A stretch of DNA of 64,000 nucleotides from Candidatus Altimarinota bacterium (GTDB lineage Bacteria > Patescibacteriota > Gracilibacteria > BD1-5 > UBA6164): NCBI GenBank assembly GCA_028697205.1, contig JAQVFO010000002.1, forward strand, positions 1 to 64,000. The letters are read 5' to 3'. This document shows positions 8,136-28,298 of this stretch, piece by piece (position 1 is the stretch's first letter; each line of letters starts with the position of its first letter). The notes under the pieces were generated by a model that saw only the letters and a list, made by a program, of their open reading frames with translations, did not search any database and had not been told where the DNA came from. Made by a program: the position numbers and the translations under genes.

Positions 8136-8942
8136 TTAGTTACTATAAATTGAGTATTTTAGAATACCTAAATACTCAGTATTGTCGTATTTTATGCTAA
8201 GATTTTGCTTATAATCCCCAATTTTACCAGAAACAGATATTTCTGTTCTCGGCTTTGTAAAAAAGTTTCATTTTCAGTCTAAAACATAATTAATAGGAGT
8301 TGTATCACTAGAATTAAATAAAACTAAATAATTGAAATTATTTTTATTTTGATTTAAAAACCAAGATATACTCTTTTCTTCAACAGAGAAATTTAAAGAT
8401 TCATCTAATTCTTTTAAAATTCATATAGTTGTACTATTAGAAAATCATCATACTCATGATAATCATCAACTTGCACTAATAATATTCCATGAAATATCAC
8501 CTGGATTACCTGAAGTTAAAATTAACGACATATCAACAAGTCATCAACTTCACGTATCATCAGTGTAAAATAAAGGAATAATATCATAAGATAATAAGCC
8601 TAAATTTCATTCATATGTTTTTACCTTAGAATTTATATCATAAGAGATTAATACATCTCTTCATCACTTATAAGTTCAATCTAGTGAAAGCATAGTTGAT
8701 TCTCATTTTGATTTATCTATATCTAATTTATTATAGTATGCATATCAATTTGATTTTATTTTTAACATTGCATATTCTCATGCTCATTCAGCTCAATAAT
8801 AAGCTTTTAAATAATCACCTCTTCATCTATTATCATTTAGTTCTACTAAAACTAATTTAAATATAGCAGAGGTAAGCACAAATAAAAATCCTATTATAAT
8901 TATAGCGATAAGTATAGAGTATCATTTATTGTTATTTAACAT
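8136..8942 (-). CDS. PilX-like pilus assembly protein
   Basis: The 268-residue protein opens with MLNNNKGYSILIAIIIIGFLF, a type IV pilin-like leader and helix lacking the Glu at +5, as in PilX-type minor pilins. The remainder is a predicted secreted Gly/Ser-rich domain with no recognised motif. It is the last gene of the minus-strand pilus cluster, 16 bases after the PilW-like gene, so it probably belongs to the minor pilin complex that primes pilus assembly. Confidence 0.65.
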
Positions 8943-8958
8943 AGTAAAGTTTTAAGAT

Positions 8959-9558
8959 TTATTTTATTTTTAAATATCTCTCACTTAAAGTTGTTTGAAT
9001 ATTTAACTCATTAAACTTAATTAGATCAGTTTTTATTCATTTTCAAGCCATAGGTTTCATTACAAAATTTATTTGTACTTTTGGAATCAAATTTGAAAAT
9101 ACTGTAAAATTTAATTTTTCAATTTTAACAGATGAATTTGATAACATTTTTCAGTTCATAACTATAAAACATTGCTCTTTAACTTCATCACAATCAGATA
9201 AATTAGCTTTTATAAAACTTCCTGGTGATATAATATTTCTCTTTGCTAAATAATAATGATTATCTCCTACCCACAACTCAGTTCAAGTAGAAAATTTTAA
9301 AGCAGTATCTTTACATCATTGTGTAATTCATCAACCACATTCTTTTATATCATTTTTTCTTAAATCCTCTGCAATATTCTCAATAACATTTTTTGAATTC
9401 TCTTGTAATGTTCTATTTATATCTATTTTTAATGATACTTCAGAAGAATTAATAAAAATTGATATAACTGAAACCATCATTATAGAAAATATAGTAATAG
9501 CAACTATAATCTCTATTAAAGTGAAGGCTAAATTAATTTCTGATTTTTTATTTTTCAT
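8959..9558 (-). CDS. Type IV prepilin (PilW/PilJ-like minor pilin)
   Basis: A 199-residue prepilin: leader ending NLA, then FTLIEIIVAITIFSIMMVSVI with Glu +5. The body has a Cys pair region (KECGGGITGGCKD) and a second Cys pair further on (DCDEVKEQC), the usual disulphide of minor pilins. Ala precedes the cleavage site. Located between PilX-like and PilV-like genes in the same orientation, it fits a minor pilin operon. Confidence 0.75.
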
Positions 9559-9585
9559 TTATTTAAAATTTAGCATTTAAAATTT

Positions 9586-10224
9586 TTATAATCTCTTATA
9601 GTCAGCAATTATTGTTGTTAAAAAAGTATCATGATATCATCTATTATACCATATTACTTTTGATGTAACTTTATATGCATTATTAACAACTACATCAATT
9701 CATCATGCATTTTTATATTTTAATTCTTCAAATTTTACATATCTATAAAATCATGATTTTCTGAGTCAAGCAGAAATACAGTTAGAATTATATACATATT
9801 TATTTGAATTATCTAAACACAACTCATAGTTTTTCATTTTTGTTGTTATAAGTGATGGTCATTCTCCAAAATCTACTATTTTATCAAGTTTAACAGAAAA
9901 ACTTGTTGTTACATTAGAAAAATTTGGAGAAACTTTATAATAAACTCAAGTTTGTATTAAATTCACTGGTAAAGTGTAATCTGTTACTAAATTTGGATTT
10001 AAGGAATCCCATCTATGTAAATTTTCATAGTTTGAGTCTCTTAAATTTTTTACTAATTCTAATCATTCTCTTGCTAAATTTGTGGCTATAATCTGATTTT
10101 TATTATAATCATTTAAATTTATGCTTGATGAAATAATTAAATAAATAGAAACAAGTCATAATGAAAATATAAATATTCATATAATTATTTCTATTATTGC
10201 TACTCATGATTTATTTATTTGCAT
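9586..10224 (-). CDS. Type IV prepilin (PilV-like minor pilin)
   Basis: A 212-residue protein starting MQINKSGVAIIEIIIGIFIFSLG, a prepilin leader with Gly before the cut and Glu +5, followed by the PilV-typical stretch NQIIATNLAREGLELVKNLRD. The C-terminal domain is unassigned. It sits 30 bases after the FimT/GspH-like gene. Gly at the cleavage site is encoded by TGA. Confidence 0.75.
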
Positions 10225-10254
10225 AACTTAATGCTTAATGATAAAATTCTATTT

Positions 10255-10833
10255 TTAATAATCAACAATATTAGTTGTTGTAATGTATTTTATATCCTTA
10301 CTTAAAGCAGCAGATGAAGTTCATTTTAAAGAGATATTTACATCTATTTCATCTCAAGTAAAAACTTTTTTTCATGGAGTAGCATCCCAATAATAATAAG
10401 ATCAACTTCAGGTAATTGCTTGAAATAAAAACAAAAATTTCTTCTTAGAACTTACATCGTTTAATTGAACTCATTTTGAAAAATTAATTTCCTTTAATAA
10501 TTTTTTCTCTGGTAGAGATATTAAATCTACAGATGGAATATCTAAATCATATGGATATGAAAAAAAACTTATTTTATCTGAAGTAGAAGTATCAAAATAA
10601 ACTCAAACAGAAACATTTCAACTACTAGAATCAAGTCAATTTATAGCCATGTTTCTAGCATTATATAGTGCTTGAGAAATATCTTTTGAAGTCAGTCTCA
10701 GATTCATTTTATTTTGATAATAAGCAAAGTTTAAATATGCTGCTCAAGTTACAATCATAAAAATAGTTATAGCAACTATAAGCTCAATAAGAGTAAATCA
10801 TTTTTTAATTATTTGCTTTTTGATATTGACCAT
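10255..10833 (-). CDS. Type IV prepilin (FimT/GspH-like)
   Basis: A 192-residue prepilin with KKGFTLIELIVAITIF, the Gly before the cut being a TGA codon, then LTSKDISQALYNARNMAIN, a pattern of GspH/FimT pseudopilins in which the second helix is followed by a beta-rich domain. First gene of the minor-pilin block, separated from pilC by a terminator hairpin, so it probably has its own promoter. Confidence 0.75.
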
Positions 10834-10838
10834 AAATA

Positions 10839-10874
10839 AAAAGATATATAAATTTCTCAAATTATATATCTTTT
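10839..10874 (-). terminator. Terminator between pilC and the minor pilin block
   Basis: AAAAGATATATAA (10839-10851) pairs with TTATATATCTTTT (10862-10874). On the minus strand it follows pilC and is flanked by T-rich sequence directly before the FimT-like ATG, implying attenuation or separate transcription of the minor pilins. Confidence 0.65.
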
Positions 10875-10942
10875 TTTCTTTATTCAAAATATTTTTTACC
10901 TTTACTTTTGCAATTATATAACCTATTCTTATACCTAAAATT

Positions 10943-12055
10943 CTATCAAACTGTTTGAGTAACTTTTAAAATAGCTCAAAATATAGCAAATGCAAACCAA
11001 ATTACAAAAGCTCAAGCTATCAAAATTGCAATTGGTTCAATCCACTTTGTTAAATTAGCAAGTGAAGAGTCTACTTCTCTATTATATTGATCGCTTATTT
11101 TTTTTGATACTTGTTCTATTGTTGCTGTTCTTTCTCATACAGAAAAAAGTTGTATAAAATCTGATGTAAAATACTTATTTTCAGGATCAATTTCTTGCAT
11201 ACTTTCAGTTATTTTATTTCATTTTGAAACCTTATCAGATATAGAAATAATAAGATTTTGATATTCTACATTGTTTATAGCTTTTGAAAGCAATGCTAAT
11301 GATTTTACAACTGAAACTCACGCTCACATAAGAGACCCTAAATTTGAAGCAAAAATTGATAAAATATAGTTTCTATAAACATTTCAAATCAAAGGAAATC
11401 CTAATAAAAAACTAGATATTGCTAACTTTCACTTATTTGTATTTTTATAAAAAACAAATCCTATATAACACAATATAACTAAAAATATTAACATAATAAA
11501 ATTAGTTCTAATAAAATCTGATGTTTTTATAAGCAATAATGTTGCAAGTGGTAATTCTACTCAAGCATTATCAAAGATTGGTGTAATAGAAGGAATAACA
11601 TATGTTAAAACGATCAAAACAGCAACCAATAAAAACACAAATATTATCAAAGGATATGTTAAAGCTCATTTTATTTTTAAATGTAAATTATGAATTTTTT
11701 TCAAATCTTCACTAAGTCACATCAAAACTATTGATAATGTTCAAGTTGTTTCTCATGCTTCTATAATCGCAATTTCAGATGTTTCAAATACATTTGGAAT
11801 TTTTTTCATAGCTCTACTAAAAGAATCTCAACTTGAAATATACATTCTCAATTCCTCAATTTTGTCTAAGAAAAATTTATTTTTTATTTTTTTTCAAATT
11901 CATGATAAAGCTTCAGAGACAGTAATCCCTCCTTCAATCATAATTCATATGTAATCATAAAAATTGTATTTATCTACTAATGATACTTTTTTAAATAAAT
12001 AAAATGTATCATATATTTCTTCTTCTGTTTTGATTTTATTATTTAAATTATCCAT
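10943..12055 (-). CDS. pilC: Type IV pilus inner-membrane platform protein PilC
   Basis: The 370-residue protein has two T2SSF domains and three membrane helices in the PilC/GspF order. The first domain carries GIMIEGGITVSEALSGIGKK and EAGETTGTLSIVL; the second repeats it as NLGSLMGAGVSVVKSLALLSKA and SVGERTATIEQV, with a C-terminal helix WIEPIAILIAGAFVIWFAFAIFG (shown in pieces of the same region). PilC forms the rotor below the pilus that the PilB/PilT ATPases turn. No ATPase gene is in the window. Confidence 0.92.
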
Positions 12056-12064
12056 ATATAAAGA

Positions 12065-12613
12065 TTATTTATAAAAAATTCTTAAAGGTAAACTAATATT
12101 AAAAGATCATTCTGTTTTATCATTTGGAAACGAAAAATTATCTATAAATAATTTATAAGCTGAATTTGGTGAAATTATGAAATCAAGCATCTCAAACATT
12201 TTATATTCATCAGAAACAGTTAAACTTAGAGTTATAGTTCACTCATTAAATCCATATTCATTTGTTGTTCATTTATCAAAAGATATATTATCTATCAATA
12301 TATATCAACTTCAATTTCTACTGTTGTATACATAAGAATAAAAATAATCTAACAATTCATCTTCTTTTATCTCATGAACATATTTTTTTATTTCATCTAT
12401 TCCTCAAGAATTATTTATATTTATAGTCCTATTCAATTCTTCTAGTTTTGTTAAAACTGCTCTTTTATCATTTAATTCTGTCTCAATAACGCTCAATGAA
12501 TCTTTATTTTCTTGAATTGAATTAAAATAATCTTTTGCAAAAAATAATATTATAAAGATAGATAGTACTACTAAAAAATAAAAAAGTAATTTATTTTGGT
12601 CCTTTGTTTGCAT
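12065..12613 (-). CDS. PilO-like pilus alignment protein
   Basis: A 182-residue bitopic protein: short cytoplasmic start, one membrane helix (about residues 9-26), coiled coil (about 30-65) and a C-terminal alpha/beta domain. Size, topology and position directly between the PilN-like gene and pilC are those of PilO, which together with PilN and PilM aligns the machine. It starts 30 bases after the PilN-like stop and ends nine bases before pilC. Sequence identity is too low for naming with certainty. Confidence 0.65.
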
Positions 12614-12643
12614 AAAAAAATCTTAGAATATAAAGTTATTAAA

Positions 12644-13162
12644 TTATTTTAATGTTAAATTAACTCAAAATGTCATACTATCAAATCAATTAAAGTTATT
12701 TATAAATCATAAATCAAACATAGATTTTGGATCTTCTCTATAACTTTTAATAAACATAGAAACTCTATTTGAAGCAAGAGTAGTTGAATTAAATGGAGCT
12801 GACGCTTGTAATGATAAATTTCAATTATTGTAATTAAATCATTTAAAAACTATTCAATAAATACCTTCAAGTGACCTAACATGATAAATGAAATCTTTTA
12901 TTCTAGATTTCTTTGTTAGATCAGCTAAAACATTTTTATTTTGTTGTAATAGATTATAAACCTGTATATTTTTATCATCTTGCAATTTTGTAATTGATTC
13001 ATTTATTTGATTTATTTTGTCAGTATTTGCTACTATATTTTTTTCTAAATTTAAATTATAAAAGAATAAACTAGCAGTTAATACTACAGAAAACAATAAA
13101 AAAAAATATCCAAGATATAATAAATTACTTTTATTTGTTTGTTTTTCATTTAATGAAATCAT
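12644..13162 (-). CDS. PilN-like pilus assembly protein
   Basis: A 172-residue bitopic protein that begins MISLNEKQTNKSN, a short N-terminal tail like the PilN peptide that docks into PilM, then one membrane helix (about 15-37), a coiled coil and a small ferredoxin-like C-terminal domain. It heads the cluster PilN-PilO-PilC. A PilM homologue is not in the window. The call depends on topology and gene order. Confidence 0.65.
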
Positions 13163-13309: not shown

Positions 13310-13747
13310 TTATGGTGTTGGTACGTTTGTTGCTCCTAGATTTAAAACATCAATAATCCATTTAACTATTGGATATGCAAGCCACATTATAACTATTCAA
13401 AGTGTAACATAAATTATAGTATTTTTTGATTTTTTTAAACTATCTTCATTTCAGTTTGAAGTAAGAACTCTAAATCAAGCATAAATTATATAAATAACTG
13501 CAACTATTGTAACAAATGTAAGTAAATATATAATTATATCTTGTATGTATTGTGAAAAAGTTTTTGTTTTTTCTACATCTGTAAGCACATTTTGAACTTG
13601 ATCTACTCAAGCTTGATATCAACAATTTTCTCAAGTACAATATGGAATTTCTCAATTATTGTCTTCAAATGGATTCCAAGCTGAAACTTGTAAAAAAGTT
13701 ATTGATAAAACTAAAGCTAAAATTATGCTCTTAAATGTATTTTTCAT
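13310..13747 (-). CDS. VirB2/TrbC-like small pilin-type membrane protein
   Basis: A 145-residue protein with a signal peptide (cut near FLQVSA-W), a short Cys-containing region (PYCTGENCG), and two membrane helices. The segment YLLTFVTIVAVIYIIYAGF then LTSNGNEDSLKKSKNTI then a second helix is the type IV secretion pilin-like pattern common in CPR genomes. A second copy is at 45936-46286. The role in CPR cells is not known; candidates are a surface filament or a small membrane pore. Confidence 0.7.
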
Positions 13748-13874
13748 CAGTAAAAATTTAAAAAATAATTGATTTATTTTTATTATATATAAACTTCAAT
13801 AGAAAGCAAAAAAAATGTAATTCCTTGAAAATTTTGTTAATTTATCCCATTATTTGTTATTTTATATTGTTTTT

Positions 13875-14891
13875 ATGAAACAAAAAATCTGATACTTTCT
13901 CCTTTGATTACTATATGCATTTATATTTTATGTAAATTGAATAATCTGAATTATAGAAACAACTATAAGCTTGATTTTATACTGCATTTTATTTTTCTTT
14001 ATCTATTCATTATGGGAAAAATTTAGAAAAAGAGAACCTTTAAATTTTGTAGAATTTTGAAAAAAATTTATATATAAAATATGTTTATTCATCTATACTA
14101 TTGCTTTTATAATCTGGTGATTTGCTTTCTATAACAACTCAATAAATCCTGCAACTATGCCTCAATTTACTATTTCAAATTGACAAAAAACAGTTGTATT
14201 TCAAGCTATGAGTCATATAGCTAGACCAGATTTCTATAAACAAGTTGAGCAAGAAATAAGAGATTTCAAAACTTCATCATGAGTACTTTTTTACGAATGA
14301 GTAAAAGAATGAACAAAAGAATCAAATGATAAGTTTGATCAGGCACTTTGAGTAAACTTTACTCCAGACTTATACAAAAATATGAGTAGATTATATGGTG
14401 TTACTTTTCAAGATAATTCAAAACTATTATGACTTGTTAACAATCTAGATTTCAATGTTGATTTAACTCTTGATGAAGTTGTAAAAATTTATGAAGAAAA
14501 AGTTAAAAATAATGGTACAAAAAATGTGAATAATCAAGAAGTAATAAATGCTAGTGATGAAATAATAGCTCAACTTAGTACCTTAAATGATAGAGAACTA
14601 AAAATACTTGTTTATATAAACCAAGCTATTTTGAACCTAATAATCAAAAATGATAAAGAAATGAAAAAACTACTAGAAAATTTCTGAAATCCAGATTTAC
14701 TTGATGTTATTCTTGATGAAAGAAATAAAAATCTAGCAGATAATATAGAAAAAAGTGAATATAATAAAATATTTATTACATACTGACTTCTTCATTTTGA
14801 ATGAGTTTTAAAGCTACTTCAAGAATCTGACTCAAAATGGAAAATTATAAGTACAAAAGAATTATATCCAATTAGTGAGAAAAAGTTTTAA
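13875..14891 (+). CDS. Membrane protein with TraB/PrgY/GumN-like domain
   Basis: The 338-residue protein has two N-terminal membrane segments (about 5-48 and 68-90) followed by a soluble domain. The motif VVFQAMSHIARPDFY with a conserved His, then GVLFYEGVK with a conserved Glu, matches the TraB (Tiki-like) erythromycin-esterase/haem-type fold in which His and Glu residues bind metal for proteolysis. PrgY, a member, degrades peptide pheromone. Substrate here is unknown. It ends seven bases before the promoter of the foreign locus. Confidence 0.65.
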
Positions 14892-14897
14892 AAAATA

Positions 14898-14924
14898 TTG
14901 ACAATAAAAATATTTACATATAAT
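14898..14924 (+). promoter_or_regulatory. Predicted promoter of the foreign locus
   Basis: TTGACA (14898-14903) and TATAAT (14919-14924), both perfect consensus boxes, with a 15-base spacer, which is one to two bases shorter than ideal. Directly downstream of the TraB-like stop codon. Confidence 0.6.
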
Positions 14925-14957
14925 TCAGTTACTTTCAACCTGAAATAGGAGAGAAAA

Positions 14958-15185
14958 ATGTACCTAGCAATAGGTATCATTGCCTTAATTGGCACAGTTC
15001 TTCTCCTGATTTTCAGGCCAGAAGAAAAACTCATCGTCATCACAACAATTGAAGTATTAGAGGATATTATCCTCGAAATATGGAATGGTTGTGAAGGCAA
15101 AAATTGCGAGAGAGGTCTGAAGTTTAGACCATCCTGCGCCAACTGGCGCCAACTCCTCAATGGAGGAGGTACGGAATTCGGCTAA
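14958..15185 (+). CDS. Small single-pass membrane protein of foreign composition
   Basis: A 75-residue frame with an N-terminal membrane helix (residues 2-19) and a C-terminal tail containing EGKNCERG and NWRQLLNGGGTEFG. It differs from every neighbour: a perfect SD (AGGAG, 14947-14951, six bases from ATG), about half G+C locally, codons such as CTC, GTC, GCC, CGC, and all glycines as GGN with no TGA. It therefore reads the same in the standard code. No homologue is recognised. It overlaps a series of hairpins, so the RNA itself may be the functional product. Either reading suggests recent transfer. Confidence 0.5.
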   Translation: MYLAIGIIALIGTVLLLIFRPEEKLIVITTIEVLEDIILEIWNGCEGKNCERGLKFRPSCANWRQLLNGGGTEFG

Positions 15186-15238
15186 AGGAAATCTTTTAGC
15201 CTCCTCGCAAGCACAAGGCCGCCCTTCGGGGCGACCTT
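14961..15238 (+). ncRNA. Possible structured RNA: nine consecutive hairpins
   Basis: Perfect or near-perfect stems follow one another: TACCTA/TAGGTA with a GCAA loop (14961-14976), TGCC/GGCA (14981-14994), CCTGA/TCAGG (15005-15017), GAGGAT/ATCCTC (15060-15074), GGTCT/AGACC (15114-15130), GCGCC/GGCGC (15136-15149), CTCC/GGAG (15153-15165), GGCTAAA/TTTAGCC (15180-15201) and the terminator. Promoter and terminator bracket a transcript of about 310 bases. It does not show the landmarks of RNase P, tmRNA, SRP or 6S RNA. The same bases also form the 75-codon frame. Confidence 0.4.
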
Positions 15239-15250
15239 TAATTTTTATTT
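15215..15250 (+). terminator. GC-rich terminator with UUCG tetraloop
   Basis: Stem 15215-15224 with 15229-15238 closed by C(UUCG)G, one internal A-C mismatch, followed by TTAATTTTTATTTT. All other terminators in the window are AT-rich, so this one stands out in composition. Confidence 0.85.
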
Positions 15251-15304: not shown

Positions 15305-15505
15305 ATGATTTGACTGATTATTTGATTAAGCTCTTTACTAGCTATAAGTCTACTATTTAATTATATACAACACTTAGAAAATAAAGAGTATTTATCTAGA
15401 TTAAAACTCGTAGATCAATTACAAAGTGAAGCACTTTACAATAAATGGAATTACACAAACATAAAAAAAAGAATTAATGATAAAAAGAAAAAAAGTAAAT
15501 CTTAA
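15305..15505 (+). CDS. Small hypothetical membrane protein
   Basis: A 66-residue frame: one membrane helix (about residues 2-19, with three TGA-coded or GGN glycines), then a basic helical tail ending KKRINDKKKKSKS. TGA codons at residues 3 and 7 show that it is native to this genetic code, unlike the locus just upstream. No family recognised. It precedes the PhnA-domain gene by 21 bases and may be co-transcribed with it. Confidence 0.5.
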
Positions 15506-15725: not shown

Positions 15726-15755
15726 AAAACTACTAAGAAATTAGTAGTTTTTTTA
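15726..15755. terminator. Bidirectional terminator
   Basis: AAAACTACTAA (15726-15736), GAAA loop, TTAGTAGTTTT (15741-15751) and flanking A and T runs, between the convergent phnA-like and nuclease-like genes; the latter's stop codon lies in the T run. Confidence 0.85.
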
Positions 15756-16469
15756 TAATTGTATATCAGGAAATCATGTCATATACACAGGGATTTTTCA
15801 TTCACTCAAGCTAAAATGAGTTTGTTCAAAATCTCAAGGATTTTCCAAAAAAAGCTTTTTTGCACCAGTTACTCAAAGTCACACAAAGTATTCTGTTGGC
15901 TGTCATTTTTTATTGTCTCTTATCTTGTTTTTTGTAGTTGTAGGTAAGTTATAAAAATATACTATATCACTTCTAGGAAATACAAAAACTGATTTTACTT
16001 TTACTCTCTTTTTTAAAAAACTTTCTCACGATTTAAGTCCCTTATCTTTTGCATATACTAAAGCTTCTGTTGCAGTTTTGAATCACTCTATTTTATAGTA
16101 AACTAGACAATAAAATCAGTTTTGAGGCATCTTTTGAAGCTGACTTTCTATGATAACTGCTCTATTTCAATACCTTCAAGTTTTCACTTCTCAGAAACTT
16201 CCGTCAACAAAAACCAAGTCAAACAAGTTATAATTTGGAACTCTCTTTTTTGATAAATGATTTTTTAATAATACTTTTATAAGAGTTTCTCCTACTTTTC
16301 AACATACTTGTCTAGCAAGATAGTTATTTCCTTGGTTTGGAATATCTAATACTCCTCTTGCTTTGTTGTTAGTTGTTTTAGTGTGTTTTTTCACAGGAGT
16401 AGCCTCTCAAGTTTCTAAATCAATTCTCCTGTTAGGTACCAAACTAAGCTCTGCGTATGATGATGACAT
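15753..16469 (-). CDS. Putative PD-(D/E)XK nuclease
   Basis: A 238-residue protein not matching a named family in my reading. Residues 57-114 look like a PD-(D/E)XK core: a helix with Glu61 (GKVGETLIKVLLKN), a strand with Asp84 (NLFDLVFVDG), then Glu94-Val-Lys96 (FGEVKTGRY), followed by a Gln-containing helix (ESQLQKM) and an aromatic strand (FYCLVYYKI). The C-terminal half is unassigned. Its neighbours are a DpnI-type enzyme and an AIPR protein, so a restriction or defence role is plausible. A promoter is present at 16500-16527. The assignment to a nuclease is inference from motif spacing. Confidence 0.5.
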
Positions 16470-16499
16470 AATTTCAATCTTATAAATTCTTGTGTTTAA

Positions 16500-16527
16500 T
16501 TTATAGAGATTTATATACTTTTGTCAA
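16500..16527 (-). promoter_or_regulatory. Predicted promoter for the nuclease-like gene
   Basis: On the minus strand TTGACA (plus 16522-16527) and TATAAA (plus 16500-16505) with a 16-base spacer, 31 bases before the ATG at 16469. Confidence 0.6.
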
Positions 16528-16538
16528 ATAGTTTTTAT

Positions 16539-16577
16539 GTCATTCCTGTAAAGATAGGAAAAAGATAGGAATTTGCA
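16539..16577. repeat. Degenerate palindromic repeat with internal direct repeat
   Basis: CATTCCTGTAAAGATAGGAA forms a TTCCT/AGGAA hairpin and is followed by a second copy of AAAGATAGGAA. It resembles intergenic palindromes of the CATTCCTGNNAANGCAGGAAT type that are dispersed in other bacteria; that likeness is from memory. Confidence 0.4.
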
Positions 16578-16593
16578 TTGTACTATTCTATAT

Positions 16594-16620
16594 TGTCATC
16601 CTTAACTTGTTTCAGGATCT
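16594..16620 (+). repeat. REP-like palindrome, copy 1
   Basis: This 27-base element contains ATCCTTAACTTGTTTCAGGAT, an imperfect palindrome (ATCCTtAACt...GTTtCAGGAT). An inverted copy with 22 of 27 identities is at 20644-20670, at the other side of the defence genes. Confidence 0.55.
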
Positions 16621-16630
16621 TTTATGCTTA

Positions 16631-16795
16631 CTATAACTCACTAATACTTAACTTCTCAACTGTCATCCACTCAATTTCATCTAATCTAAAATTGTGTTTA
16701 GTAGTTAATAAATCCTCTACTTCCTCTATTTGTAAATTGTCATGATTTAAGGTATAAACTTTTCAATCACTATAATCCAAAACTATTGTTTGCAT
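16631..16795 (-). CDS. Small hypothetical protein downstream of AIPR gene
   Basis: A 54-residue acidic frame (MQTIVLDYSDGKVYTLNHDN..., ending EKLSISEL) with one TGA glycine. It begins right at the T run of the AIPR terminator, so expression would need read-through or an internal promoter. No family recognised. It may be a regulator or antitoxin-like partner of the defence genes, but nothing in the sequence shows this, and it could be a chance frame. Confidence 0.4.
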
Positions 16796-16797
16796 AA

Positions 16798-16839
16798 AAA
16801 AATTGTTAGATAGTAAATGATCATGATCTAACAATTTTT
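16798..16839 (-). terminator. AIPR gene terminator
   Basis: AAAAATTGTTAGAT (16798-16811) pairs with ATCTAACAATTTTT (16826-16839); 15 bases beyond the AIPR stop codon on the minus strand, followed by T-rich sequence. Confidence 0.85.
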
Positions 16840-16853
16840 GGAGAAAAAGCAAG

Positions 16854-18665
16854 TTAATTTAATCAAAAAATTTTTTTCATCCTATCATCCTTTTCATGCG
16901 CATAGATAGAATAATTACTTATTATATCATCTATAATACCATTATCAATTTCTTTTTTTATCATTTCATTATATGGTAAAGAATATTTACTATAATAACT
17001 ATTTACATATTGAGAAGACATCCCTTTCGTATAATCATAAATAAAAACAAAATCTTCATAATTAACAGAATCTAAAAATGAATTTATAGTTAAATTATTA
17101 TTCTTTTTAATCCAATATCACAAAAATGATAAAACATAATATGGTATTGGGGTTTTTTTATCTTGACTATTTCACTGCTCAATATCAGCATGTTTATAAA
17201 ATGAGTAAAGTTTTAACATGTTATTTATTGTAATACATTCATTAATTTTTCTCGAAAAATTTTCATATATTTTATTCCCTTCTCTTGGATCTAATAGCTT
17301 ATTCTTTTTTGTGTATGCAAAATATCAATCATTTACTACTGCTCAGATAATTTGAAGTAATTTATCGATAGGAATAAATAAGTCAGTTACTTTATTAATT
17401 TCTATATTAAATAAATTATTCTTATTAGCTATCTCAAATAAATCAAATAACGCCTTTTTATCATCTTTGTACCTTGTTTTAAATATATTTTTATCACTTG
17501 GCTTAACTAACAATAACCAACCTCTATCTTTTAATCATTCTTGTATTTTTATAAAAGGATCCAATATTGCACCAAATACTTTTTCATTAATTGCATTTTG
17601 CTTATTTGTATACTTTACAACATCTTTTGCAAATCTATCATCAATAGAGTTATCTTTGTCAACTACCAATATTTTACACATTACAAAAACATCTTTAAAG
17701 TCAGCTTTTATATCTACTTCAGAATACGAATCTAAAACATAATAAATTGAATTTACACTTTGACATCAATTAACGATTTGAGGATTATTTAATGTATATT
17801 TTGTTCAAGATTTTCTATCAACAGAATCCGCTATAATTGTAATTCAATTATTATAATAAAAAAAATTATCTCTGTCTTGTTTATCTGTCAAGGTTGCCAT
17901 TATTCATTTATTTACAGATGAATTTCATAAATATTCTCTTATATTTTTTTCAAACAATTGATATCATACTTTTTTTGATTCTTTATAAAGATTATATAAA
18001 TCAATTATTGGGGCCATAATATAATATGCTTCTTTCATATTAGGTAGATGGTAGTCTTCTGGTAGTATCTTTAAACAATTTTTTTCATACCTTGTAGTAA
18101 TATCTCATGACATACTCTTTTTATTTATGTACGATTCTCAATAATATTTCTCATAAATATCATCTAAAAAAAATATATTAGCCTCAAATTTAGAGTTATT
18201 TTTTCTAAATTCTCAAATTAAATCATTATAATAATCTTGCTTTTTTAAATTAGTAATATAAAAATGTAAAAATATATTGTACTCATTATCATCCTTAACA
18301 TCATTATATACCTTTTGTAAACTTTTATTTCGATATTCATTCGAGTTAAGAGCTGAAATAGGTGAAATTAAAAAATCTGAAAGCTCCTTTCTAGATAATG
18401 AAGTGTTTTCATCATAGTATTTATTTTGAATAATAAAAAGCTCCTTAGTATCTGGAAAATGTACGAAACAATCTATTCATTTATCATTGTATTCAGTAAC
18501 ACAATCTTTTGCTATTTCATCATCAAGATTATACATTTTAGTAAGTACCCAATAATTAAATGTATACTCATCTTTCAAAATATTTGAGTCATAATTAAAT
18601 CTTAATTTTAGTAATTGTATATCTTCATCAATTTGACTTTTAAATAAATTTAATTTACTTTCCAT
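16854..18665 (-). CDS. AIPR family abortive infection protein
   Basis: The 603-residue protein matches the AIPR family (abortive infection phage resistance). An N-terminal Mrr-like nuclease-type core shows DKGIDCFVHF (Asp61, Asp65) and ELFIIQNKYY (Gln80-Asn-Lys82, replacing the usual E-x-K). The AIPR hallmark follows: LFEKNIREYLG (237-247), FFYYNNGITIIAD (268-280) and NPQIVNGCQS (294-303). Members are found in restriction-linked and abortive defence loci. It starts 26 bases after the DpnI-type gene and is probably translated from the same mRNA. A terminator follows. Its mode of sensing is not known from sequence. Confidence 0.85.
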
Positions 18666-18691
18666 ATTAATATAGTTAACAAATAAACTTC

Positions 18692-19447
18692 TTATAAAAC
18701 CCTATATCTCCCTCTTCTCACAAACTCCAAATATCACTTATCTCTCAAAACTTGAAGTTGTTGTCTTATCTTATCCTCTATAAAATTATTTTGAGGATGT
18801 TTTACTTTTAATAAATCTTTGAAATTATACATCTCATCAATAGAAAAATCCTTTTTTCAAAGCTTTTCTATACAATCAATTATATCAAGTAACCATCATT
18901 TAGTTTCTCATTTCTGATTTCCTAGAAAACAAGTTTTCTTCCAACTATCTAAGATTATATCCTTTTTTATTTCTTTTCAATCTTGTATGTAAAAAATCTT
19001 TCAACTTTCTGGAATTCCCAAAAGAGATATATTACACATCAGATATTCTCATCTATCTTTTAACACTCTTGGAGCTTTGATTATATTTTCAGATCTAATA
19101 AAAAACTTAGGAATTACTAAAAAATTAGAAATTTCTAAGTTTTGTTTATAAGTTAAAAAGAAAAAACTAGGATTTGTTGAACTTTCTAGTCTTTCAATCA
19201 TGGTTCCATAAGCTCAATCTGGAACAATATTTCATAGATTTATTGATTTTTTTGATTTAAGTTCAAAATCTTCACTGCAACTTTTACAATAAAAATCTGC
19301 AACTGGTCTATTGTTTGTATGATGAATAATTTGATATCAACAACTAGGACAAAACACATTTTCTCAAGTCCAAAATTCAGTCATTACTCTAACTCTTTGA
19401 GAAGGACTTCTATAATTTACAGCTAAATCTGGATTAAGAAAATTCAT
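18692..19447 (-). CDS. DpnI-type restriction endonuclease (methyl-directed)
   Basis: The 251-residue protein aligns over its whole length with DpnI/Dam-replacing family enzymes, which cut G(m6A)TC. Two zinc Cys pairs (Cys33/36 and Cys54/57) frame NNRPVADFYC, and the catalytic set Asp51, Glu62, Lys64 (FELKSKK) corresponds to D53/E64/K66 of DpnI. The conserved DGAYGTMIERL, PRVLKDRGEYLMCNI and GWLLDIIDCIEKL regions follow. The C-terminal winged helix (IRQQLQVLRDKGYLEFVRRG) reads methylated DNA. No Dam methylase is nearby, as expected for a methyl-dependent enzyme: it would attack DNA from dam+ phages or hosts. Confidence 0.93.
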
Positions 19448-27917: not shown

Positions 27918-27944
27918 TTGAAAAGCTATGTTTTTTGTTATAAT
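27918..27944 (+). promoter_or_regulatory. Strong extended -10 promoter of the lipoprotein gene
   Basis: TTGAAA (27918-27923) and TGTTATAAT with a perfect -10 at 27939-27944 and the extended TGN motif, 39 bases before the ATG. Confidence 0.65.
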
Positions 27945-27983
27945 GTGCTTGCGTTTATTTATTTCTTTATATATAATATAAAT

Positions 27984-28298
27984 ATGAAAAAAGTTTTAAG
28001 TTTAAGTTTAGCTTTAATTTTAGCTTTATCTTTAGCATCTTGTGGTTCTAGTACTACTACTGATACTACTACTACTGACACTGCAGTTACTACTGATGCT
28101 ACTACTGGTACTGATGCTCCTGCTGCTGATACTACTACTACTACTACTGGTACTGATGCTCCTGCTGCTGACACTACTACTACTGTAGATACTACTGTAG
28201 ATACTACTGTTAATGCAACTAATGAAGCTAATACTAACACTACTGAAGCTCCTGCTACTGAAACTGTTCCTACTACTGAAGCTCCTGCTGCTAATTAG
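27984..28298 (+). CDS. Small Thr/Ala/Asp-rich lipoprotein
   Basis: A 104-residue protein with a lipoprotein signal peptide MKKVLSLSLALILALSLASC (lipobox LASC, lipidated Cys20) and a mature part made only of Thr, Ala, Asp, Val, Glu, Pro, Asn, Gly and Ser, with two copies of TGTDAPAADTTTT. I chose the ATG at 27984 because an upstream in-frame ATG at 27918 lies in the promoter. Codons are strongly biased (ACT, GCT, GAT) and every glycine is GGT, with no TGA. A disordered, perhaps glycosylated surface lipoprotein made in quantity is likely. Confidence 0.75.
   Translation: MKKVLSLSLALILALSLASCGSSTTTDTTTTDTAVTTDATTGTDAPAADTTTTTTGTDAPAADTTTTVDTTVDTTVNATNEANTNTTEAPATETVPTTEAPAAN

What the first reader, a model, noticed from the sequence alone, without database searches (positions are those of the whole stretch)
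14892..15250. Foreign, hairpin-packed locus with its own promoter, SD and UUCG terminator
Seen: in about 330 bases the G+C jumps, a perfect TTGACA/TATAAT pair and AGGAG SD appear, a 75-codon frame uses no TGA and unlike codons, and nine hairpins follow one another, ending in a C(UUCG)G terminator. Everything around it is AT-rich and TGA-using. Inference: either a recently acquired small membrane protein gene compatible with the standard code, or a structured RNA whose stems happen to keep a frame open. It does not show landmarks of RNase P, tmRNA, SRP or 6S RNA. This is the best candidate here for something undescribed.
Basis: partly seen in the sequence, partly recalled or inferred. Interest (0 to 1): 0.8.

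Follow-up and report, generated by a model that had tools for sequence, protein, structure and literature searches.

The report
Folded mRNA for small membrane protein
In an ultra-small bacterium that reads the stop codon TGA as glycine, this short gene makes a 75-residue predicted membrane protein from a message that is folded almost end to end; the folding seems to be under selection and probably explains why the gene is GC-rich and never uses TGA, which matters because it shows an RNA shape overriding a genome's own codon habits.

Summary
Window 14898-15250 is a self-contained unit (promoter, SD, 75-codon ORF, UUCG terminator) and the only non-tRNA island of its GC level in 337 kb examined. 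It is neither an assembly artefact nor recently acquired. One ortholog exists at the same locus in a second species of the genus (70% nt identity, 52% protein identity). It was not detected in the class and phylum genomes sampled, nor in the phage, plasmid and viral collections searched.

The ORF is a real protein gene: dN/dS is 0.21 in frame and 1.4 and 3.1 in the other two frames (C half). Synonymous sites are near saturation, yet both copies keep GC3 of 0.44-0.47 (genes here: 0.11) and use no TGA for 15 glycines (window genes: 79% TGA). Both RNAs fold 5.5-6.7 SD below codon-shuffled controls that keep the protein and codon counts. The SD is paired at p about 0.97 or more in both, with an anti-SD inside the ORF. 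So protein and RNA foldedness are under joint selection.

Best reading: a lineage-specific, translationally gated mRNA for a small membrane protein, working like type I toxin mRNAs. Membership in a type I system is not shown: no antisense promoter is conserved. Column-by-column covariation between the two copies is not significant.

The parts
14898..14924 (+). sigma-70-type promoter TTGACA-N15-TATAAT
   Evidence: both hexamers exact and conserved in G001
14931..14957 (+). 5' leader; 20 nt TTTCAACCTGAAATAGGAGA identical in the ortholog, found nowhere else in 60 relatives (2 mismatches allowed); contains the SD AGGAG (14947-14951)
14939..15017 (+). SD-trapping stem: arm 14939-14955 (CCUGAAAUAGGAGAGAA) pairs with arm 14998-15017, the anti-SD UCUCCU (15002-15007) lying inside the ORF
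   Evidence: SD paired at p about 0.97-0.99 or more in both orthologs; only 2 of 60 codon shuffles reach 0.95 in either
14958..15185 (+). ORF, 75 aa, predicted N-terminal membrane helix (2-18), second helix (21-43), conserved tail WNGCxGKxCERGLxF...RQLLxGxGTEFG; no TGA codon
   Evidence: dN/dS 0.21 in frame; 52% identity to ortholog; low-confidence model
15036..15098 (+). central long hairpin inside the ORF
   Evidence: base helix: 9 pairs unchanged, 4 changed and kept, 0 broken in the ortholog; codon-shuffle z -3.3 and -5.8
15104..15210 (+). multibranch 3' domain closed by UUGCGAG/CUCGCAA, spanning the end of the ORF and the 3' UTR
   Evidence: same closing helix in the ortholog's fold; z -3.8 and -4.3
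15215..15250 (+). intrinsic terminator with C(UUCG)G loop and U-rich tail
   Evidence: 8 pairs unchanged and 1 compensatory pair in the ortholog
15305..15505 (+). neighbouring 66-aa TM protein gene, TGA-using, downstream of the element in both genomes; possible partner, not shown

Best explanation
A monocistronic mRNA of about 320 nt, inherited vertically since before two Altimarinota species split. It encodes a small (75 aa) probable inner-membrane protein, and selection acts on both the protein and the foldedness of the whole message. Shown by computation: the coding constraint, the extreme protein-independent RNA folding in both orthologs, and the predicted sequestration of the SD by an anti-SD inside the ORF. 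Inferred: the fold keeps translation off, as soon as the first 80 nt are made, until the RNA is opened by processing, a trans-acting RNA or protein, or a physical signal, so the protein is made only conditionally. The GC-rich third positions and the absence of the host's preferred glycine codon TGA follow from the need to form stems. In operating principle it is like type I toxin mRNAs (AapA, Hok); that the protein is toxic is a weaker guess (about 0.25).
For: Ortholog at the same locus with homologous promoter, leader, ORF, terminator and flanks. dN/dS 0.21, against 1.4 and 3.1 in the two other frames (C half); dS 1.83. Codon-shuffle z -6.7 and -5.5 for the transcript and -4.7 and -5.2 for the CDS, against background mean -0.37, sd 1.1, minimum -3.7 over 80 gene segments. 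All three domains contribute. SD paired at p about 0.97 or more in both, reached at 0.95 by 2 of 60 codon shuffles. Freely variable third positions are 50% GC where predicted paired and 28% where unpaired. The + strand folds better than the - strand in both. In AapA3 an in-ORF anti-SD and SD-sequestering hairpins stop premature toxin translation (PMC6733600).
Against: Only two orthologs are known. Individual base pairs are not conserved by covariation: 20 of 55 changed pairs stay canonical, about the chance rate; only the central base helix and the terminator are clean. So general foldedness is better supported than one exact fold. In G001 the SD opens transiently at predicted nascent lengths of 200-260 nt. 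Unpaired third positions are still more GC-rich (28%) than the genome (11%). No expression data.
Confidence: 0.55

Rival explanations
1. A true type I toxin-antitoxin locus: the 75-aa protein is a membrane toxin and a small antisense RNA from the same locus keeps the folded mRNA silent.
For: Small hydrophobic protein, trapped SD, stand-alone promoter and strong terminator, patchy distribution, AIPR/AbiU and DpnI genes nearby.
Against: No antisense promoter inside the element is conserved between the two species (the G000 site at 15066 is lost in G001). The protein has a conserved Cys/Arg-rich tail beyond a simple hydrophobic peptide. The hokC coding region itself shows only z -1.8 under the same test.
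Confidence: 0.18
2. A dual-function RNA in the style of RNAIII or SgrS: the folded RNA regulates other mRNAs in trans and also encodes a small protein.
For: Foldedness extends over the whole transcript, not only the SD; conserved leader and terminator.
Against: No long unpaired conserved seed outside the leader, no covarying fixed architecture, no Rfam match.
Confidence: 0.15
3. A standard-code-compatible gene of mobile origin (code-11 phage or plasmid) kept 'bilingual' because it is expressed in standard-code cells too, such as the host bacterium.
For: Zero TGA in 15 glycine codons. Gracilibacteria phages compatible with code 11 exist (PMC10746230). A T4SS pilin-like gene lies nearby.
Against: Same locus and flanks in two species with near-saturated synonymous sites. 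No relative in phage, plasmid or viral collections. The RNA folding already explains the codon choice: every glycine codon lies at least partly in predicted stems. No evidence of transfer.
Confidence: 0.08
4. Purely a non-coding structured RNA with an accidental open frame.
For: tRNA-like GC island, folded end to end.
Against: dN/dS 0.21 only in this frame, frame-preserving indels in the CDS, conserved SD and start.
Confidence: 0.03

Closest known systems
AapA/IsoA type I toxin mRNAs of Helicobacter pylori
   Same: Short self-contained transcript, small hydrophobic protein, SD trapped by stems including an anti-SD inside the ORF (PMC6733600)
   Different: No antisense RNA detected here; protein is longer with a Cys/Arg tail; no sequence similarity shown; toxicity untested
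hok/sok family (hokC of E. coli K-12 used as yardstick)
   Same: Compact folded mRNA, one N-terminal membrane helix
   Different: hokC coding region gives codon-shuffle z -1.8 against -4.7 and -5.2 here; no sok-like antisense promoter conserved
RNAIII/delta-haemolysin and SgrS/SgrT dual-function RNAs (from general knowledge, not tested)
   Same: One folded RNA carrying a small ORF and a terminator
   Different: There the ORF is a small part of the RNA; here it covers about 70% of the transcript; no target known
Code-11-compatible phages of Gracilibacteria (PMC10746230)
   Same: Sequence free of TGA in a TGA=Gly lineage
   Different: No phage gene resembles it; chromosomal and vertically inherited in two species

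Membership tests
Type I toxin-antitoxin | small hydrophobic membrane peptide | tested here: met
   75 aa with N-terminal hydrophobic helix (model of low confidence)
Type I toxin-antitoxin | toxin mRNA folded with trapped SD | tested here: met
   prediction only, in both orthologs
Type I toxin-antitoxin | antisense RNA antitoxin from the same locus | tested here: not met
   no promoter on the opposite strand within the element is conserved between the two species; a trans-encoded RNA is not excluded
Type I toxin-antitoxin | protein toxic to the cell, neutralised by the RNA | not testable with these tools
   needs expression
Any Rfam family (including RNase P, tmRNA, SRP, 6S) | match above gathering score | tested here: not met
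   no match in the window; best local E-value 0.14, far below gathering score
Known protein family (Pfam, NCBIfam, PHROGs, PADLOC, PDB) | significant profile match | tested here: not met
Recently acquired foreign gene | absent from relatives or related to a donor outside the lineage | tested here: not met
   ortholog in same position in a sister species; no relative found elsewhere

The most novel reading that the evidence does not exclude
The gene is kept readable in both genetic codes because its product acts, or is expressed, outside the cell that carries it (for example in the host bacterium of this symbiont). The folded mRNA would then be a durable cargo rather than a silent message.
Probability: 0.05. 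Interest if true: 0.95.

Novelty: new variant of a known kind. Interest (0 to 1): 0.55.

Why it matters
In this genome TGA is the normal glycine codon and GC3 is 0.11. A gene that departs from both over a near-saturating divergence, in step with a folding energy far below codon-matched controls, is a clean natural case of RNA structure dictating codon choice, including avoidance of a reassigned stop codon. If the SD trap is functional, it would be a candidate riboregulated small-membrane-protein gene in a mostly uncultivated phylum, testable in E. coli because the gene has no TGA.

Tried and rejected
Chimeric assembly: rejected, ortholog with conserved flanks. Recent acquisition: rejected (dS). 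Chance ORF: rejected (dN/dS). Known RNA or protein family: none found. Conserved antisense promoter: none inside the element. Exact conserved fold by covariation: not supported with two sequences; RNAalifold on the pair gave only a partial consensus. Weak protein hits in G018, G007 and G038: E 0.006-0.02; the G018 locus was inspected and has no such element. Viral contigs with the motif GGNACGGAATTYGGCTA: the motif falls in other proteins or frames, chance. Other GC islands near the PhnA gene in relatives: the strongest, in G008, consists of palindromic repeats, not this element. AlphaFold model too poor (pLDDT 54) for a fold search.

Full report
Setting. The window is contig 12 of a 1.27 Mb genome using code 25, TGA = glycine: in 58 window ORFs 947 of 1201 glycine codons are TGA, GC3 is 0.11. 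A same-genus genome (G001) holds the ortholog; its record is titled Candidatus Altimarinus sp. (DYHI01000001.1), phylum Altimarinota in the NCBI taxonomy.

Check of the observation. The listed features are present: TTGACA 14898-14903, TATAAT 14919-14924 (spacer 15), AGGAG 14947-14951, ATG 14958, TAA 15183-15185, terminator 15215-15238 with C(UUCG)G. In 337 kb scanned (this window, 200 kb more of the same contig, 73 kb of the sister genome) the only islands with 150-nt GC above 0.5 are this element, its ortholog and a tRNA cluster. The promoter hexamer pair alone is not beyond chance but is conserved exactly.

Not foreign, not chimeric. blastn against 99 relatives finds one full-length relative, G001, 70% identical over all 359 nt; the other hits are short AT-rich promoter-like stretches of 24-44 nt. 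Alignment shows promoter, leader, ORF, stop, terminator and both flanks homologous, between the same TraB/PrgY-like membrane protein gene upstream (78% identical) and 66-aa and PhnA-domain genes downstream (66% and 95%). The upstream gene occurs in 44 of 47 family genomes, but the element was found only in these two genomes: not in the rest of the family, 353 class genomes or a 380-genome phylum sample, nor in phages, plasmids or viral contigs by DNA, protein or motif. So it is a lineage-specific element at least as old as the split of the two species.

The frame is a gene. In-frame dN 0.39, dS 1.83, ratio 0.21; in the C half 0.22, against 1.37 and 3.07 in the two other frames. The strongest conservation is WNGC[ED]GK[ND]CERGLxF and RQLLxGxGTEFG. 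The protein has no profile or PDB relative (a weak Pfam match at E 0.12). AlphaFold suggests helices 2-18 and 21-43 but at pLDDT 54.

The RNA is selected to fold. Against dinucleotide shuffles z is -8.2 and -9.2. Stronger: shuffling synonymous codons, which keeps protein, codon counts and GC, gives z -6.7 and -5.5 for the transcript and -4.7 and -5.2 for the CDS; none of 300 shuffles reaches the native energy in any of the four. Eighty control segments from window genes average -0.37 (sd 1.1, minimum -3.7), and hokC's CDS gives -1.8. All three domains contribute in both species. The domain plan is shared: SD stem with a small hairpin at the AUG, central hairpin, multibranch domain closed by UUGCGAG/CUCGCAA or CUUCGCAA, terminator. 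The SD is paired at p about 0.97 or more in both full transcripts, and 2 of 60 codon shuffles in each reach 0.95.

Limits of the structural claim. Mapping one species' pairs onto the other, 20 of 55 (or 17 of 50) changed pairs remain canonical, no better than the 37.5% chance rate. Clean helices are the central base (9 same, 4 changed and kept, 0 broken) and the terminator (8 same, 1 compensatory); the SD stem is mixed (8 same, 3 kept, 6 broken). The 3' UTR alignment is unreliable, so the closing helix is undercounted. With two sequences I can claim selected foldedness and a shared plan, not a fixed covarying structure.

Codon usage. GC3 stays at 0.44 and 0.47 and TGA at 0 of 15 glycines although synonymous sites have turned over. 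Every glycine codon lies at least partly in predicted stems, and freely variable third positions are 50% GC when predicted paired, 28% when not. RNA folding thus explains most of the bias and probably the missing TGA, with a residue unexplained. The low probability of no TGA (about 8e-7 for the nine codons of this gene alone at 79% usage, assuming independence) is therefore not independent evidence for foreign origin.

Mechanism. Most likely a gated message: predicted SD trapping appears once about 80 nt are made, by an anti-SD inside the ORF, the arrangement shown for AapA3 (PMC6733600). What opens it is unknown. Type I membership fails one tested feature (no conserved antisense promoter) and its key feature, toxicity, is untestable here. 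Defence-type genes lie beyond the PhnA gene in this genome (AIPR/AbiU, DpnI) and a DNA methylase in the sister, so the site may border a variable defence region; this is context, not evidence of function.

Noticed in passing
window 15753-19447: Probable defence genes next to the element: AIPR/AbiU-like protein (16854-18665, -) and DpnI-type methyl-directed restriction enzyme (18692-19447, -); in the sister genome an N6/N4 DNA methylase stands on that side instead (L002:258-1013).
   Followed up: partly
window 13310-14891: T4SS/TrbC-type pilin-like protein and a TraB/PrgY-like 345-aa membrane protein conserved in 44 of 47 family genomes, beside a run of pilin-like, PilN/PilO-like-looking and T2SSF genes (8136-13162).
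   Followed up: partly
window 15305-15505: 66-aa single-TM protein gene, TGA-using, found only in the two genomes that carry the element (one weak hit elsewhere in the genus); has its own conserved TATAAT; possible partner.
   Followed up: partly
L091:1251-1390; L021 (reverse complement, just after the TraB-like gene): GC-rich palindromic repeats (CCCCCTAGCCCCCTCCTT...AAGGAGGGG) in intergenic regions of relatives G008 and G012, reminiscent of REP or MITE-type repeats.
   Followed up: no
window 27918-28298: Thr-rich low-complexity lipoprotein-like ORF (CGSSTTTDTTTTD...) with locally raised GC and no TGA.
   Followed up: no
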